From Cytophagales bacterium (GTDB lineage Bacteria > Bacteroidota > Bacteroidia > Cytophagales > Amoebophilaceae): DNA of 38,855 nucleotides. Location of the stretch: NCBI GenBank assembly GCA_020629455.1, contig JAHDDH010000006.1, forward strand, positions 1-38,855. The letters are read 5' to 3'. Under the pieces are notes generated by a model. That model had not been told where the DNA came from and made no database searches. It was given only the letters and a program-made list of their open reading frames with translations. The translations under genes were made by a program, and so were the position numbers. This document shows, one piece after another, positions 1-38,855 of this stretch (the first letter of the stretch is position 1; each line of letters opens with the position of its first letter).

Positions 1-950
1 ACCATCTCATCAAACCTTTTCACTATACTATAACCCCTCCTTTGAAAATAATCCTTCACCTCCACCACACAATCACCAGTAGCTAAAAAAAAATCTCCGC
101 CCCAAGCACCCAAAGACTTCAAAGCCCCTGGATAATCCGTAAACAAACGGCCAATGCAAGGCTTGCACAATATTTTTTCCATCCTTGCCTCATGCTTTTG
201 CATCAATATTTCAAAATCAGACAAAACATCACAAACGAGCATTGCCTGCGTCAAATTTGATATATACTGAATATCCTTTGATCCATAATTTTTTTTTCGA
301 AACTGCTGTACAGCCTTTTCAGAAGATACTTTGTGCCCTGTATACACAAAAAATAAATGATCTGAAAACGTTGGATGAAAAGAAACAGCTGTATAAACAA
401 TCCCTTTTTGAGGACAGTTTTTGTAAAGAATTGGTCGTTGCATCTTTGTACAAGCAATATCATAGCCAGAACCATCAAAAAGTATATGCCATAACCTTAA
501 CGGATCTATTTGTACCCATTGTGCCAAATGATATACCAACGTCGCACTACTCCCTAAGCCCCATGCAGGAGAAAAGTTTTGGTCTGTACGCACATATACC
601 CCATGGCGTATGCTCCAAAAGCCAGGCTGTAACTTCTGTATAGTAACAAATATTTTTTGTAGAAACTGAGCTTTTGCCATATCATTCGAAGACAAACATT
701 CCAGGCTATTGGCATCATAAATTGCCTCAAACAACAAACGATTGTCATAAAATTGCTGCCAAACAATTTTGGGGAAATCAAATCGATCAAACGTTTTTTC
801 TACCCACGGACGAACGGTAAAATTTTGTTGATAACACAAAGGCAAAGCCAAACCCACTGCCCCATCCATAATTAAATATTCTCCAGAAAGCAATAACTGA
901 CCATATGCTACTCTTGTTTTTACAAACAAGGCCTCTGCATTAAGAAACAT
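1..950 (-). CDS. GHMP kinase, GYDIA family (mevalonate-pathway kinase), 3' end beyond window
   Basis: I translated this by hand from ATG at 950-948. The frame is open for 316 codons to the left edge, so the stop lies outside. The ATP-binding motif of GHMP kinases (PAWGLGSSAT) is at about residues 128-137, and GSGYDIA at 160-166 is the signature of the Bacteroidota GYDIA subfamily. An N-terminal GEYLIMDGAVGLALP segment fits the substrate-binding strand. The family is about 300 residues long, so little is missing. The start overlaps the end of the HMG-CoA reductase gene by 11 bases, placing it last in a fni-HMGR-kinase operon. By context it phosphorylates mevalonate or phosphomevalonate; which one cannot be told from sequence. 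Confidence 0.9.
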   Translation of the reverse strand, partial: MFLNAEALFVKTRVAYGQLLLSGEYLIMDGAVGLALPLCYQQNFTVRPWVEKTFDRFDFPKIVWQQFYDNRLLFEAIYDANSLECLSSNDMAKAQFLQKIFVTIQKLQPGFWSIRHGVYVRTDQNFSPAWGLGSSATLVYHLAQWVQIDPLRLWHILFDGSGYDIACTKMQRPILYKNCPQKGIVYTAVSFHPTFSDHLFFVYTGHKVSSEKAVQQFRKKNYGSKDIQYISNLTQAMLVCDVLSDFEILMQKHEARMEKILCKPCIGRLFTDYPGALKSLGAWGGDFFLATGDCVVEVKDYFQRRGYSIVKRFDEM

Positions 951-2232
951 TTTTTCTGATATAATCCTTCACCGCTTGTGTAGAAACTACTTGATTTTGA
1001 AAATAAACCATAGCCTTTTCTCTTTGTGCTAATGTAAGCTTATAGCAGCTCAAAAGATTATGCAAATGCATACGCATATGTCCCTGTTGAATTCCTGTAG
1101 TAATCAAAGCTGTAAGCGCACTAAAATGACTAGCCAAACCCACCGCTGCCATAATTTGCATCAAATCTATTGCATTAGGTTTTTGTAATAATCTCAAAGA
1201 TGTCTCTACTAAAGGATGCAAACGTGTCATACCACCCACAACGCCGATCATTAAAGGCAATTTGAGCTGAACAGTGAATACATCCTCTTCTAAACTTACT
1301 TTTGTCAACCCTTGATAACATCCTTCTGCAGCTGCATAAACATGCACCGCTGTTTCTATCGCCCTACAATCATTTCCTGTCGCAAGGGCAAGGGCATCAA
1401 TACCATTCAAAATACCTTTATTATGAGTAGCTGCACGATATATATCATGATGTGCAATATGCGTAGCCAAAGCAAATTTTTCAGCAAAAATAGGAGGTGC
1501 TATACCATGAATATATCCTAAATCTTTGATAGCACAAGATACACGACTAATGACCATACAATGAGGTGCATGATTGGAAAGAATACTCATAATAATTTCA
1601 AAAGCAATGCAAGGCCATTGGGCAGTGACATATATTTGACATGCTTTTGCCATAGCTTCTAAGCAAGTGTTGATAAAATTAGCACCCATGGCATCACATG
1701 TATCAAACGTAACATGTATTTGGTAGTAAAAACTGGCAATATTTTTTTTTTCTTTCAGTTGTATCGTCTGAATACCTCCACCTCTTTTTTTCATGTCCTC
1801 TGTAATGGACTGCGTAGCCTCAAGCATTTTTATTTTGATCCACTGCCAATGATCATATAATTTTTGTATATCTCCATACCAACGAAAATGGATTTGTCCT
1901 TCTTTTTGTGTACTGAGAACACTTGTTCGAAATCCTCCACGGGTATACCAAAATTTAGCTGCTTTGGCCAAAGCAGCCACCACAGAGCTCTCTTCTGTCA
2001 CCAACGGCACGTGGTATATTTTCTGATTGATTAAAAAGTGAGGCGCTACACTATAAGGAAGTATGAAATTGGTCAATACATTCTCGCTCAATCCTTCCAT
2101 ATTTTTTTGGATATGCTCTTGTGGGTGTAGGCACTCTTGGATTTTTTTTTTGATATGATTTGCCTGGGGTAAATCTTTTAAAATCCATTGGATTTTTTTT
2201 TCTCTAGGCCATTTTGAAAAAGCAGGTAACAT
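940..2232 (-). CDS. Hydroxymethylglutaryl-CoA reductase, class II
   Basis: Interconverts HMG-CoA and mevalonate, the committed step of mevalonate-dependent isoprenoid synthesis. At 430 residues it has the length of the compact soluble class II enzymes, with no membrane domain. The catalytic set is visible: Glu in TEESS, Lys in THNKGI, Asp in TGND, and the C-terminal His in QGHM. DAMGAN and GVVGGMTRLHP are also conserved family blocks. It lies 24 bases downstream of the IPP isomerase gene and overlaps the following GHMP kinase. In Bacteroidota this enzyme works in the biosynthetic direction, and the neighbours support that here. No ribosome binding site is visible before the ATG. Confidence 0.95.
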   Translation of the reverse strand: MLPAFSKWPREKKIQWILKDLPQANHIKKKIQECLHPQEHIQKNMEGLSENVLTNFILPYSVAPHFLINQKIYHVPLVTEESSVVAALAKAAKFWYTRGGFRTSVLSTQKEGQIHFRWYGDIQKLYDHWQWIKIKMLEATQSITEDMKKRGGGIQTIQLKEKKNIASFYYQIHVTFDTCDAMGANFINTCLEAMAKACQIYVTAQWPCIAFEIIMSILSNHAPHCMVISRVSCAIKDLGYIHGIAPPIFAEKFALATHIAHHDIYRAATHNKGILNGIDALALATGNDCRAIETAVHVYAAAEGCYQGLTKVSLEEDVFTVQLKLPLMIGVVGGMTRLHPLVETSLRLLQKPNAIDLMQIMAAVGLASHFSALTALITTGIQQGHMRMHLHNLLSCYKLTLAQREKAMVYFQNQVVSTQAVKDYIRKNVS

Positions 2233-2256
2233 GATAATTATTGTATAGCATTTGCA

Positions 2257-3297
2257 TCAATGGTCTTTTTTTACTTGAAAAAAATTTTTTGCCAAAGCCA
2301 AACCCTTAATTTCTAAAGTAAGATATTGACAAAGAGCTTTATATGAAATTTTTGCTTGTTGCAATAATTTGCCAGCCTGCCCGTAGATAGCAGGCATTTG
2401 AGATAAACCCATAAGATAGTATCCATCTAAAAAAGATTGTATACCGCCTGAAATGATCAACTTTTGACAATATACATGTGGCTCAAGCACTCCTTTTTGA
2501 TAATTCAAAAAAGCAATCATTTCTTCTGAAGAATGGCCTATTTTCGCCAATGGTAAATATTGTTTTTGTTGTGCACGGCTACACCGCAATGTTTCTAACA
2601 AAGCAAAATTTGTTCCACCAAAACCAGCCAATTCGATCGCAGCCAAAGGCAATTGCAAAAGCTCCCTTAAACTTTTAGGACCAAAACCTTGCCCTACTTC
2701 TTTGATGATGACTGGATAATTGACCCACTGCAAAAATTTTTGAACTGTAAGCAAAGGCGATTGAGTAAATAAATTACCTTCTGGCTGTATAAACTCTTGT
2801 ATAGGATTGATGTGAATGATTAGTCCGTCTGTGTTCAATTGTTGTATTATATGATTAATAGGCTGTATATTTTCTTTTTGAACAGCTTCTTCAATTTGTG
2901 CAATGCCTAGATTCGCAAAAAACAATATATCTTCCCCTAAAATAGGCCTCAAATCAAAATCTTTGAGATATTTTTCACTAGTCAATAAACTTCTACAAGA
3001 ACCTAAACCCATACCCAAACCAAAATATTTACAAGCCTTTGCCAAACGTTGATTGATGGTAAAAGCAGCATCAGCACCTCCTGTCATACTTGAAATCCAT
3101 AAAGGCCACCGCATCGATTTTTTGAGCCATATTTGCTGCATAGGTGCATGGTCTAATACATCTCTCAGATGCGATGCCAGCATTGGTTCGTAATAAAACC
3201 GTTCATCTTTCATCATATGATCTACTATGCTATGAGGTGCTAGCTGGATATGGACTGATTTTCTGTGACGAGTGAAAATTTTTTTAAAAAAAGACAT
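2257..3297 (-). CDS. fni: Type 2 isopentenyl-diphosphate isomerase
   Basis: FMN- and NADPH-dependent interconversion of isopentenyl and dimethylallyl diphosphate, the last step of the mevalonate pathway. The 346-residue length is normal for a TIM-barrel type 2 enzyme. Visible family blocks are SSMTGGADAAF near residue 70, GLGMGLGSCRSLL near 97, INPIQEFIQPEGN near 160, VIIKEVGQGFG and the C-terminal GFGGTNFA phosphate/flavin site. It is the first gene of the leftward operon; a candidate promoter lies at 3326-3355. It is not related to type 1 (Nudix) isomerases. Confidence 0.94.
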   Translation of the reverse strand: MSFFKKIFTRHRKSVHIQLAPHSIVDHMMKDERFYYEPMLASHLRDVLDHAPMQQIWLKKSMRWPLWISSMTGGADAAFTINQRLAKACKYFGLGMGLGSCRSLLTSEKYLKDFDLRPILGEDILFFANLGIAQIEEAVQKENIQPINHIIQQLNTDGLIIHINPIQEFIQPEGNLFTQSPLLTVQKFLQWVNYPVIIKEVGQGFGPKSLRELLQLPLAAIELAGFGGTNFALLETLRCSRAQQKQYLPLAKIGHSSEEMIAFLNYQKGVLEPHVYCQKLIISGGIQSFLDGYYLMGLSQMPAIYGQAGKLLQQAKISYKALCQYLTLEIKGLALAKNFFQVKKDH

Positions 3298-18463: not shown

Positions 18464-18497
18464 TTTGTTAAAAAAAAATGACATATTTGTATCCTTA
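18464..18497 (+). promoter_or_regulatory. Candidate promoter for the SRP RNA
   Basis: TTTG at 18464-18467 and TATCCTTA at 18490-18497 (two mismatches from the Bacteroidota TAnnTTTG box) stand at nearly the expected separation. They end about 5 bases before the predicted RNA start. The support is position relative to a recognisable RNA gene. Confidence 0.35.
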
Positions 18498-18501
18498 TAA
18501 A

Positions 18502-18602
18502 GGCAAATCGGTATGAATAGTCTCCTATTGAATCCTCCAGGTCTGGAAAGAAGCAAAGGTAAGATGGTTGTAGCAGTTCGATACTTGATTTGCCTTTTTT
18601 TA
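18502..18602 (+). ncRNA. ffs: Signal recognition particle RNA, small bacterial type (4.5S)
   Basis: The Ffh-binding apical hairpin is clear: CCAGGTCTGGAAAGAAGCA at 18537-18555 carries the GGAA tetraloop and the conserved AGCA side of the asymmetric internal loop, followed by AAAGGTAAG. The ends pair perfectly, GGCAAATC at 18502-18509 with GATTTGCC at 18587-18594, and a T run follows directly, serving as terminator. The 93-base length is right for the Alu-less bacterial RNA. It directs membrane-protein synthesis with Ffh and FtsY. Confidence 0.9.
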
Positions 18603-35308: not shown

Positions 35309-36721
35309 TCAACATAAAAAGAAAAATACAGCTGTAAAGTAAATGATGAGGCCAATAATGTCAACCAATGTGGTAATGGCAGGACTAGCAACAATGGCAG
35401 GATCACCTTTCAAATATTTTACAACAAGCGGTAGTATAGTACCCACCAAAGAAGAAAATATTACTTGCATGCTTAAGGCAAAAGCAATTGTTATAGCTAA
35501 AATGACAATGTTTGCAAAATCGTGGGAAAGATAATAGACTTTCAAAAAACTTAAACAGAATAAACAAATAGCAATCAAAAAAGCTATTTTCAATTCTTTA
35601 AAAAGAATTTTCCACCAATTTTTCAACGATATTTGCCCTGCCGATAATGCCCGAATAATTACAGAAGCAGCTTGACTTCCAATATTACCTCCTGTGCTGG
35701 TAATCATAGGGATATAAAAGGCCAGTATGGTCAATTTTTCTAAAATACTCTCATAGCGCGTCATCAAAATACTGGAAAGTAAACTGGCTACAAAAAGACC
35801 AGTAATCCATACTACTCTTTTTTTAAAATGCTGTAGCACAGATAACACAAAATAACTTTTACTCGCTTCATCGGGTACAATCCCCATAAATTTTTCCATA
35901 TCTTCTTTTTCTTCTGCTCTTACAATATCTAACACATCATCATGTAAAACAATACCTACCAACTGTTTTTTAGGATTTAATACTGGTATAGCCACAAGAT
36001 TATATTTTGCTACTTGTTGGGCTACTTTTTCTCTGTCTTCAGTGACTTGTACAGCAACAAAATTTTTGTGTAATACTTTCGCTACTGTATGACTCGGTTC
36101 TTCTAAGATTAAATCTTTTAAAGTAACAAAACCCATCAACTGCATTTGATGATTCACAACATAGAGATAATAAATCATCTGCTTTGAAGGGGCATCTTCT
36201 CGTAATTTTTGCAATGCTTCTGCAATAGACATATCGTGATGAATTGTAGCAAAATCAGTACTCATAATACCTCCTGCTGTTTCTGGAGGATATCCACTCA
36301 AAGCCAATACATTTTCTTTAATTTTTTTTGCAAGAAAAGGCAACAGTTGTATACGTTCTTTATCATGTAAAAATTGATAAAAATCAGCCCTTTGGTCTGA
36401 AGGAATACAACTGAATAGAAGGGCAAATTTTTTTTTTTCCATTTTACAATAAATTGCCCGCTGTGTTTCATGTGGTAATTCTGCAAATACGACACCCCAT
36501 TTTTTATAGGGAATTTTTGTCAGTATTTTGACTATGGAAGGGATAGATAAGGCAGTAAGCCATTCCGAAATATCAGCTATTGGTAGTTGATCAAGCACTT
36601 CTGCTGCAAGAGCAATTTCATTTTTTTTGAGTAGTTTTTCCCATAGTTGGAAATAAAACTTTGTATTGTCTTTCTGCATACACCACACATTATGATCACA
36701 TACCGTAGGCGATGCATACAA
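35309..36721 (-). CDS. mgtE: Magnesium transporter MgtE
   Basis: Mg2+ channel regulated by intracellular Mg2+. It has 470 residues: an N-terminal MgtE_N helical domain (about 20-130), a pair of CBS domains (about 150-270, with GIMSTDFATIHHDMSIAEAL and MGFVTLKDLI), a connecting helix and five membrane helices. STGGNIGSQAAS near 350 is the pore signature, and DPAIVASPAITTLVDIIG near 445 the second conserved helix. An inner ATG 14 codons later is also possible as start. First gene of the mgtE-accD-hemW operon. Confidence 0.93.
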   Translation of the reverse strand: MYASPTVCDHNVWCMQKDNTKFYFQLWEKLLKKNEIALAAEVLDQLPIADISEWLTALSIPSIVKILTKIPYKKWGVVFAELPHETQRAIYCKMEKKKFALLFSCIPSDQRADFYQFLHDKERIQLLPFLAKKIKENVLALSGYPPETAGGIMSTDFATIHHDMSIAEALQKLREDAPSKQMIYYLYVVNHQMQLMGFVTLKDLILEEPSHTVAKVLHKNFVAVQVTEDREKVAQQVAKYNLVAIPVLNPKKQLVGIVLHDDVLDIVRAEEKEDMEKFMGIVPDEASKSYFVLSVLQHFKKRVVWITGLFVASLLSSILMTRYESILEKLTILAFYIPMITSTGGNIGSQAASVIIRALSAGQISLKNWWKILFKELKIAFLIAICLFCLSFLKVYYLSHDFANIVILAITIAFALSMQVIFSSLVGTILPLVVKYLKGDPAIVASPAITTLVDIIGLIIYFTAVFFFLC

Positions 36722-36944
36722 AACATAAAAATATCATTGATATCCAATGGTAAATAACAAAAAAATTCTTGTGTTGAGCTTTAGATCTTAATGATAATTT
36801 ATTGTCTGCTTTTAAACAACAAAAACTACTTGGAGTATAGCCTTGAATCGACTATCTCTGTTTTAACCATTGGCATCTTTCAACATTTTTATCACAAATA
36901 GTTTGTATTCACTAAGTAGCCTCACCTAGTAGGTATGGGGTGAA

Positions 36945-37607: not shown

Positions 37608-37699
37608 CTTTGGAAAGGTTGATATAAAAACGTCTAAAATAAAAAATATATTTCACTCATTACTCAATAAAAAAATTTTATCTTCTTAAAATTTTTTTA

Positions 37700-38722
37700 T
37701 AAACGATAAATACAATCGCTAGATCGCTAACTTTAATAAATCTAGAAAAGAAAAAGTAGAAAGGTTTAAAATGTTATATGAAGCTTTTAAAAAATCACAA
37801 AGATAAAAATATTAAAAAAATTAATAGTTAACGAAAATTTTTTTACACTCTATATCAACATCTTAAGCAAGAAAAAATATCCTCATTTTATCAAAAATAG
37901 GAAAAAAGAAGAGTTCAAAAACTTTAATTGGTTTTTATCCAACTTAATAATTAAATAACATTTCTTCTTTTATTGATAAATATTTTACCAATACACAAAA
38001 TAATTCTGATAATTCTAAAAAAAAAATTAAAATATCAAAAATATAATTTTCAAAAACAATACCATAAAAAAATTTATAAATACTATTTTATAAACAACCA
38101 GTCGTAAAAAAAATAGAAAGCGCCACAAAGAAAATTTTTCATACTTTTTTTTATTACACAAAATAACATGAAAATATTTATAATTCTTTTCAAAAAAATG
38201 TGGTGATTGTTTATTCAATATAATACAGTTCATATAGAGAATTATACAACGTATACAATGGCTAACAGACACAGATTTTTCCAAAACTATTGGATTTAAA
38301 GACAAAAAAATTTTGAATGTTTTATTAAATTGTGGTATACCTAAAAAAATCTACAATATTTTTTTCAGGGTACCTATAATATATATAGACATAACCTATA
38401 GAAGAATATAATTTTCCTGAAAAAAATATAATTCCTTTTGATACAATTTGGCAACATACCTTGTATGAAACACAAAAAAAAGTATGAAAATCTGCTGCTC
38501 AAAATATAAACGATACAAAGCTCTTATCCTTAAAATCACATACTTTCTTATATAATGATGAAATAAAGATGTATGAAAAAAAATAAATTTATTCAAGAAA
38601 AATTTGAGCAGATATACACAAACTCTCTTAGAGGTTCTTACTAGAAAAAAATTTGATAAAGAAGTTGAAGATTATTATAATAATTTAATTCTAGATACTT
38701 TTGAAGAGTTCAAAAAAAACTA
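37700..38722 (+). pseudogene. Decayed gene remnant(s) beside the 16S rRNA gene
   Basis: The 1.2-kb space between the TPR gene and 16S rRNA holds no intact gene. On the plus strand coding-like pieces follow one another with shifts of frame: EKVERFKMLYEAFKKSQ (about 37750), RKFFYTLYQHLKQEKISSFY (about 37840), WLTDTDFSKTIGFKDKKILN (about 38260-38320), NIIPFDTIWQHTLYETQKKV (about 38427-38486, then TGA), KSAAQNINDTKLLSLK, and LSRYTQTLLEVLTRKKFDKE to a TAA at 38720-38722. At 38575-38582 a run of eight A is one base short of joining two pieces. The parent family is not recognised. Confidence 0.5.
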
Positions 38723-38820
38723 ATTATAAACTATATATTTTTATATCATTAACCTACTATAATCAATTTTTTTGAAAAAAAATTATTGTATATAGTATAG
38801 ACACGATTAAAAATTTTTTT

Positions 38821-38855
38821 ATCCAGCCACACCTTCCGGTACGGCTACCTTGTTA
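38821..38855 (-). rRNA. rrs: 16S ribosomal RNA, 3' end only
   Basis: Read on the minus strand, the last 35 bases are the conserved 3' terminal segment of 16S rRNA: TAACAAGGTAGCCGTACC, the helix 45 tetraloop GGAA, GGTGTGGCTGGAT. This is the typical Bacteroidota version. The gene enters from the right edge. After GGAT, where CACCTCCTT is expected, the sequence becomes AAAAAAATTTTTAATCG. The mature end is therefore probably at or just after 38821, without the anti-Shine-Dalgarno. No tRNA or 23S sequence follows downstream in the window. Confidence 0.93.

What the first reader, a model, noticed from the sequence alone, without database searches (positions are those of the whole stretch)
38800..38855. 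16S rRNA 3' end lacks the anti-Shine-Dalgarno sequence
Seen directly: the minus strand reads through helix 45 with its GGAA loop and GGCTGGAT, then changes to AAAAAAATTTTTAATCG, with no CCTCC within the following bases. In nearly all bacteria GGAT is followed by CACCTCCTT. Loss of this tail is known from a few highly reduced endosymbionts. Bacteroidota in general use Shine-Dalgarno pairing little, so this lineage may have completed the step. Inference: initiation here relies on unstructured A-rich leaders and ribosomal proteins such as bS1, bS21 or IF3.
Basis: partly seen in the sequence, partly recalled or inferred. Interest (0 to 1): 0.92.

Follow-up and report, generated by a model that had tools for sequence, protein, structure and literature searches.

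The report
Symbiont ribosome lacking its mRNA-pairing tail
In this reduced relative of the symbionts Amoebophilus and Cardinium, both copies of the small-subunit ribosomal RNA gene have lost the CCTCC tail that nearly all bacteria use to line up with messenger RNA, and its relatives show the loss in stages, together with erosion of other parts that depend on the tail.

Summary
The window's minus-strand end reads through 16S helix 45 to GGAT (38821) and continues AAAAAAATTTTTAATCGTGT, with no CCTCC. A second contig (C2) ends in the identical 55 nt, and two others (C1, C5) share the 55 nt of the 16S 5' end. So the assembly holds 16S as a two-copy repeat and both copies have this tail. Each copy also has its own processing stem (C1 with the window, C5 with C2); in the window copy it starts 17 nt after GGAT and leaves only AAAAAAAUUUUUAAUC for the tail. 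The family is Amoebophilaceae, where the anti-SD decays in steps: CCTCC, CCTCT, TCTCT, TCTCA, ATTCA, and here AAAAA. bS21, a bS18 motif, the rpsR Shine-Dalgarno sequence and the prfB frameshift site erode with it. Best reading: initiation does not use rRNA-mRNA pairing, and the last other uses of the tail were lost too. CCUCC loss as such is known (Weeksellaceae, Hodgkinia, Carsonella, Cardinium cEper1). Total A7U5 replacement within a graded family series is a new variant. Not shown: reads, mature RNA ends, the 16S body.

The parts
38821..38855 (-). 3' end of the 16S rRNA gene, cut by the contig end: helix 45 (about 38823-38849) with GGAA loop, ending GGCTGGAT
   Evidence: Read directly; matches the 16S ends of 13 family relatives
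38801..38820 (-). Tail AAAAAAATTTTTAATCGTGT in place of the anti-Shine-Dalgarno region; no CCTCC
   Evidence: Read directly; identical in the second 16S copy on contig C2 although the flanks beyond it differ
38782..38804 (-). 3' arm of the presumed pre-16S processing stem; pairs with the flank upstream of the 16S 5' end on contig C1 (-97..-74)
   Evidence: 22 paired nt with one bulge; 1 of 200 dinucleotide shuffles as good; cross pairings give none
38801..38855 (-). 55-nt block shared exactly with the end of contig C2; marks the k=55 overlap of a two-copy 16S repeat
   Evidence: Contig-end comparison

Best explanation
This is a true 16S rRNA gene, one of two identical copies, whose anti-Shine-Dalgarno sequence has been completely replaced by an A/T tract (AAAAA at the CCUCC position). 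Ribosomes of this Amoebophilaceae bacterium therefore cannot pair with mRNA through the 16S tail, and choose starts by the other means already used in Bacteroidia (unstructured AT-rich leaders, start codon and initiator tRNA). In Bacteroidia the anti-SD is normally hidden in a bS21/bS18/bS6 pocket and kept for a few special jobs: the SD of rpsR or rpsU, the RF2 (prfB) +1 frameshift, and Era-guided 30S assembly. In this family these jobs erode with the anti-SD, so selection for CCUCC faded and in this lineage it vanished. Shown: the sequence, two copies in the assembly, processing stems, the family gradient and the erosion of partner features. Inferred: that the mature rRNA ends within the 16-nt tail, the order of the losses, and the initiation mode.
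For: Tail read directly. Two 16S copies with the same tail. Private processing stems for both copies. Graded anti-SD decay in the family. bS21 decayed to 28 bits and Tyr54 replaced by His; bS18 LPRR, kept in all 20 relatives, is IPAK here. rpsR SD present in A. asiaticus, G004 and G005 and absent here. prfB frameshift lost in the other strongly decayed genomes. No GGAGG in 131 leaders. F. johnsoniae ribosomes with AAAAA for CCUCC work in part (PMC8710568).
Against: No reads, no RNA 3' end and no full 16S sequence were available. The genome is a draft (83.7% complete), and its prfB gene was not found, so the frameshift prediction is untested in the organism itself. The lineage evolves fast (long branch), so part of the bS21, bS18 and Era change may be general drift; S6, S18 and L9 scores are only about a tenth lower, which limits that. 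The correlation of tail and bS21 (Spearman -0.67, 14 genomes) ignores relatedness. Stem significance for C1-window is 1 of 200 by helix score and 32 of 500 by whole-duplex energy.
Confidence: 0.83

Rival explanations
1. Assembly or binning artefact: the 16S fragment was joined to foreign sequence right after GGAT, where conserved 16S k-mers from several organisms meet.
For: The contig ends inside 16S, a usual breaking point, and no reads could be checked.
Against: Two contigs continue from the same tail-bearing 55-mer and two enter the same 16S 5' end; both pairs of flanks form private stems, which a random junction would not give.
Confidence: 0.06
2. Both tail-bearing ends belong to 16S pseudogenes or partial copies, and a functional 16S with CCTCC exists in the missing part of the genome.
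For: The 16S body and about 16% of the genome are missing. An intact third copy branching at GGA would not be visible in the contigs at hand.
Against: 5' and 3' contexts balance (two and two), helix 45 is intact, the copies are identical, both have stems, and relatives carry one 16S. Partner features are eroded as expected if no CCUCC remained.
Confidence: 0.06
3. The A-rich tail is a new anti-SD that pairs with U-rich tracts in mRNA leaders.
For: Leaders are T-rich, and T5 tracts are about twice as common as in the two relatives sampled.
Against: T5 and T6 tracts are not enriched at -20..-4 over -60..-44 (17.6% against 17.6%, 7.6% against 6.9%). The tail's own A7 and U5 could pair with each other or with neighbouring copies as easily as with mRNA.
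Confidence: 0.03

Closest known systems
Cardinium hertigii cEper1 (same family; G016 here), listed as SD-scarce without CCUCC in PMC10783764
   Same: Same family, reduced genome, altered anti-SD, hardly any SD use
   Different: Its tail is TATCTCTTTT, a partial decay that still pairs weakly (-7.3 kcal/mol), and it keeps the prfB frameshift site and a normal bS21
Weeksellaceae / Chryseobacterium ribosomes with anti-SD UCUCA (PMC8710568, PMC10783764)
   Same: Bacteroidota with altered anti-SD and no prfB frameshift; G007 here has the same TCTCA core and also lacks the frameshift
   Different: Point changes in an otherwise normal tail in large free-living genomes; here the whole tail is replaced
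Tiny insect endosymbionts (Hodgkinia, Carsonella, Nasuia; PMC10783764, PMC6107228)
   Same: No CCUCC and few SD sequences
   Different: Other phyla and far smaller genomes; Hodgkinia tails differ between copies, whereas the two copies here are identical
Engineered F. johnsoniae 16S with CCUCC changed to AAAAA (PMC8710568)
   Same: AAAAA at the anti-SD position in a Bacteroidia ribosome
   Different: Laboratory construct with reduced activity and intact partner proteins; here it is the natural state, with altered bS21 and bS18

Membership tests
16S rRNA gene (functional) | Conserved helix 45 and GGAU 3' region | tested here: met
   Exact match to the 30-nt pattern used across relatives
16S rRNA gene (functional) | Flanks form a pre-16S processing stem | tested here: met
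   C1-window and C5-C2 stems, cross pairs negative in the helix test
16S rRNA gene (functional) | Full-length body and expression | not testable with these tools
   The body is the collapsed repeat left out of the bin; no RNA data
16S rRNA with anti-Shine-Dalgarno | CCUCC 3-12 nt after GGAU | tested here: not met
   No CCTCC or 4-of-5 match within 100 nt in either copy
SD-scarce organisms lacking CCUCC (class iv of PMC10783764) | No CCUCC in any 16S copy | tested here: met
   Both copies in the assembly lack it; a third copy cannot be excluded in a draft
SD-scarce organisms lacking CCUCC (class iv of PMC10783764) | Few SD sequences before genes | tested here: met
   131 genes: GGAGG 0%, short SD cores 4.6% against 2.3% control; starts are first-ATG calls
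Amoebophilaceae | Same family as C. hertigii cEper1 and A. asiaticus 5a2 | tested here: met
   Tool's family grouping; contig lengths 887,130 and 1,884,364 equal the published sizes
RF2 without programmed frameshift | prfB read in one frame | tested here: inconclusive
   prfB not found in this genome; one frame in G001, G006, G007

The most novel reading that the evidence does not exclude
The whole 30S platform around the rRNA tail has been rebuilt: bS21 and bS18 changed together with a new A7U5 tail, so that this ribosome has no rRNA-mRNA pairing in any role (initiation, rpsR/rpsU autoregulation, RF2 frameshifting), and Era-guided assembly reads a different tail. The family would be a natural step-by-step series of that dismantling.
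Probability: 0.4. Interest if true: 0.75.

Novelty: new variant of a known kind. Interest (0 to 1): 0.6.

Why it matters
Why SD-blind Bacteroidota still keep CCUCC is an open question. This family shows the sequence fading in at least two separate lines (G000, and G006/G007), together with the features thought to keep it: the rpsR SD, the RF2 frameshift, bS21 and bS18 pocket residues, and Era KH residues. That makes the question testable by comparison, and the engineered AAAAA ribosome of F. johnsoniae gains a natural counterpart.

Tried and rejected
Rfam SSU and LSU searches of the genome found nothing, but the SSU search also misses genomes that certainly have 16S (A. asiaticus, G009), so absence there means little. 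A scan of about 85,000 GTDB genomes for a helix-45 end followed by five A/T at the anti-SD place gave four contigs; all four carry LSU before SSU with tRNAs and look mitochondrial, and two of them show the same sequence in bins named Rickettsiales and Flavobacteriales, so no second bacterial case was found. The pattern needs an exact helix 45, so fast-evolving symbionts such as Hodgkinia are missed by design. A draw of 394 Bacteroidota genomes gave only this one, with the same limit. A U-tract replacement for the SD was tested and dropped. A first duplex test with 90-nt flanks missed the C1-window stem because its 5' arm starts 97 nt upstream; longer flanks and a local-helix test found it. Loss of Era as an explanation was dropped: Era is full length, with KH changes. 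Reassignment of TGA for want of RF2 was considered; 8 of 33 window genes end in TGA, so the missing RF2 more likely reflects the incomplete bin. The structure paper of the F. johnsoniae ribosome (Jha 2021) was not held, so contact residues other than bS21 Tyr54 could not be checked one by one.

Full report
OBSERVATION. The minus strand of the window's right end reads TAACAAGGTAGCCGTACCGGAAGGTGTGGCTGGAT (38855-38821), then AAAAAAATTTTTAATCGTGT (38820-38801). In the first 100 nt after GGAT neither this copy nor the second one holds CCTCC or a 4-of-5 match to it. The finding is as described.

SECOND COPY OR ASSEMBLY ERROR? The window is contig C6 of an 800,097-base draft of 11 contigs. I compared all contig ends. 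C6 and C2 end in the same 55 nt: the 16S 3' end plus 20 nt of tail after GGAT. C1 and C5 begin in the same 55 nt: the 16S 5' end (TTACCCTAGAGAGTTTGATCCTGGCTCAG...). Exactly 55 shared letters at each side is what a de Bruijn assembly with k=55 leaves around a two-copy repeat. So there are two 16S genes, homogenised over the gene, with unrelated flanks, and both carry the tail. By E. coli numbering (inference) the shared block starts about at the mature 5' end and stops 20 nt past GGAT.

PROCESSING STEMS. Bacterial pre-16S is cut out of a long stem formed by its two flanks (established knowledge). Of the four possible flank pairs only two give a local helix above background: C1 with the window (22 paired nt with one bulge, 3' arm +17..+39 after GGAT, 1 of 200 dinucleotide shuffles as good) and C5 with C2 (17 bp, +70..+86, 1 of 200). 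By whole-duplex energy C5-C2 is far below shuffles (-39.1 kcal/mol, 0 of 500), C1-C2 is weakly low (8 of 500), C1-C6 is not significant (32 of 500) and C5-C6 is background, so the pairing C1-window rests on the local helix. Two different sequences that both form a stem argue that both loci are real transcription units. For the window copy the stem leaves 16 nt, AAAAAAAUUUUUAAUC, as the only place for the mature tail.

FAMILY. Two relatives in the same family have contigs of 887,130 and 1,884,364 bases, the published sizes of Cardinium hertigii cEper1 and Amoebophilus asiaticus 5a2 (PMC3486910). The family is therefore Amoebophilaceae. Tails after TGGA: G004 and G013 ACACCTCCTTT; G012 ATACCTCCTTT; G002 ATACCTCTTTT; G015 ACATCTCTTTT; G010 and G016 to G020 ATATCTCTTTT; G007 ATATCTCAATT; G006 ATAATTCATTT; this genome TAAAAAAATTTT. 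Computed pairing with a full SD falls from -15.0 to -0.2 kcal/mol. A tree of S6, S18, L9 and Era puts G000 with the main group (99/99) and apart from G001, G006 and G007, so its loss looks independent of theirs. Within genus g9, G013 keeps CCTCC while its sisters have TCTCT.

PARTNERS. In F. johnsoniae the tail is held by bS21, bS18 and bS6, and bS21 Tyr54 stacks on A1534 (PMC9976891). Here bS21 scores 28 bits with its Pfam model, against 50-68 in most relatives; G007 (26), G001 (31), G003 (43) and G006 (45) are the other low ones. S18, S6 and L9 of G000 are only about a tenth lower than those of relatives, so bS21 decayed more than comparable proteins. Residue 54 is His in G000, Cys in G006 and His in G018 (position read from the alignment). 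The bS18 motif LPRR, kept in all 20 relatives, is IPAK in G000. rpsR carries an SD in A. asiaticus (AAGGAGGTGAT), G004 and G005, only purine remnants in most of genus g9, and none in G000. The prfB +1 frameshift site CTTTGAC is present in 14 relatives and absent, with an uninterrupted frame, in G001, G006 and G007; this mirrors Weeksellaceae, which have UCUCA and no prfB frameshift (PMC8710568). prfB was not found in G000, G003, G005 or G018. Era is full length in G000; of KH positions fixed in the family it changed five, including G258S (also in G006) and R262S.

LEADERS. In 131 genes of G000, GGAGG is absent from -20..-4, and short SD cores are at 4.6% against 2.3% further upstream. U-tracts are not enriched, so there is no sign that the A-rich tail is a new anti-SD. 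Gene starts were the first ATG of long ORFs, so this is a coarse test.

WHAT IS KNOWN. CCUCC variants are catalogued: 112 SD-scarce organisms without it, including Cardinium cEper1, Hodgkinia, Carsonella, Nasuia and 75 Flavobacteriia (PMC10783764). Hodgkinia tails vary between copies (PMC6107228). F. johnsoniae ribosomes with AAAAA in place of CCUCC translate with reduced activity (PMC8710568). A scan of about 85,000 species genomes for helix 45 followed by five A/T gave four contigs that look mitochondrial, and 394 Bacteroidota gave only this genome. So total replacement behind an otherwise ordinary helix 45 is rare, though these patterns miss fast-evolving symbionts.

MECHANISM. Shown: tail sequence, copy number in the assembly, stems, family gradient, partner erosion. 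Inferred: with no CCUCC, initiation depends on open AT-rich leaders, the start codon and initiator tRNA, as it mostly does in Bacteroidia. That stimulators can go first is suggested by G013, which still has CCTCC but whose prfB site has no strong SD-like part (AGCACTGTCTTTGAC).

LIMITS. Draft genome, no reads, no RNA, no full 16S, a fast-evolving lineage, and correlations over related genomes without phylogenetic correction.

Noticed in passing
36761-36940 (-), with 35309-36721 (-): M-box magnesium riboswitch (62.6 bits) directly upstream of an mgtE magnesium transporter gene, a regulated transporter kept in a reduced genome.
   Followed up: partly
18494-18599 (+): Small SRP RNA of the Bacteroidales_small_SRP family, just above the gathering score.
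   Followed up: no
3-3297 (-): Isoprenoid genes in a row: GYDIA-family GHMP kinase, HMG-CoA reductase and type 2 IPP isomerase (the last two below NCBIfam cut-offs), which suggests a mevalonate pathway.
   Followed up: partly
37610-38780: About 1.2 kb of AT-rich sequence after the 16S end without a credible gene; short open stretches on the + strand near 38600-38725 look like a decayed gene.
   Followed up: no
G000 contig C2 (L039 8231-8304, -): A tRNA (anticodon GAT by reading) lies about 1 kb after the second 16S copy with no 23S found on the contig, perhaps a relic of a linked rRNA operon.
   Followed up: no
G000 contig C2 start (L039 from base 1): Tandem 30-nt repeats (GCAGTGACAGCAGATAAACTAGCAAATAAT) at the contig end, likely coding for a repeat protein.
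   Followed up: no
L040 1-235 and 302-728 (G006): In G006 the tmRNA gene follows the 16S 3' end after about 70 nt on the same strand, an unusual neighbour for a 16S gene.
   Followed up: no
G000, G003, G005, G018: No RF2 (prfB) above cut-off in these genomes, although TGA is still used as a stop in the window (8 of 33 genes).
   Followed up: partly
L013 451-491 (G025, another family of the order): Tail ATATCTCTTTT, the same decayed anti-SD as in genus g9, which suggests convergent decay.
   Followed up: no
L035, L036, L037, L038: Mitochondrion-like rRNA contigs inside genome bins named Bacteroidetes, Bacteroidales, Rickettsiales and Flavobacteriales; likely contamination of those bins.
   Followed up: partly
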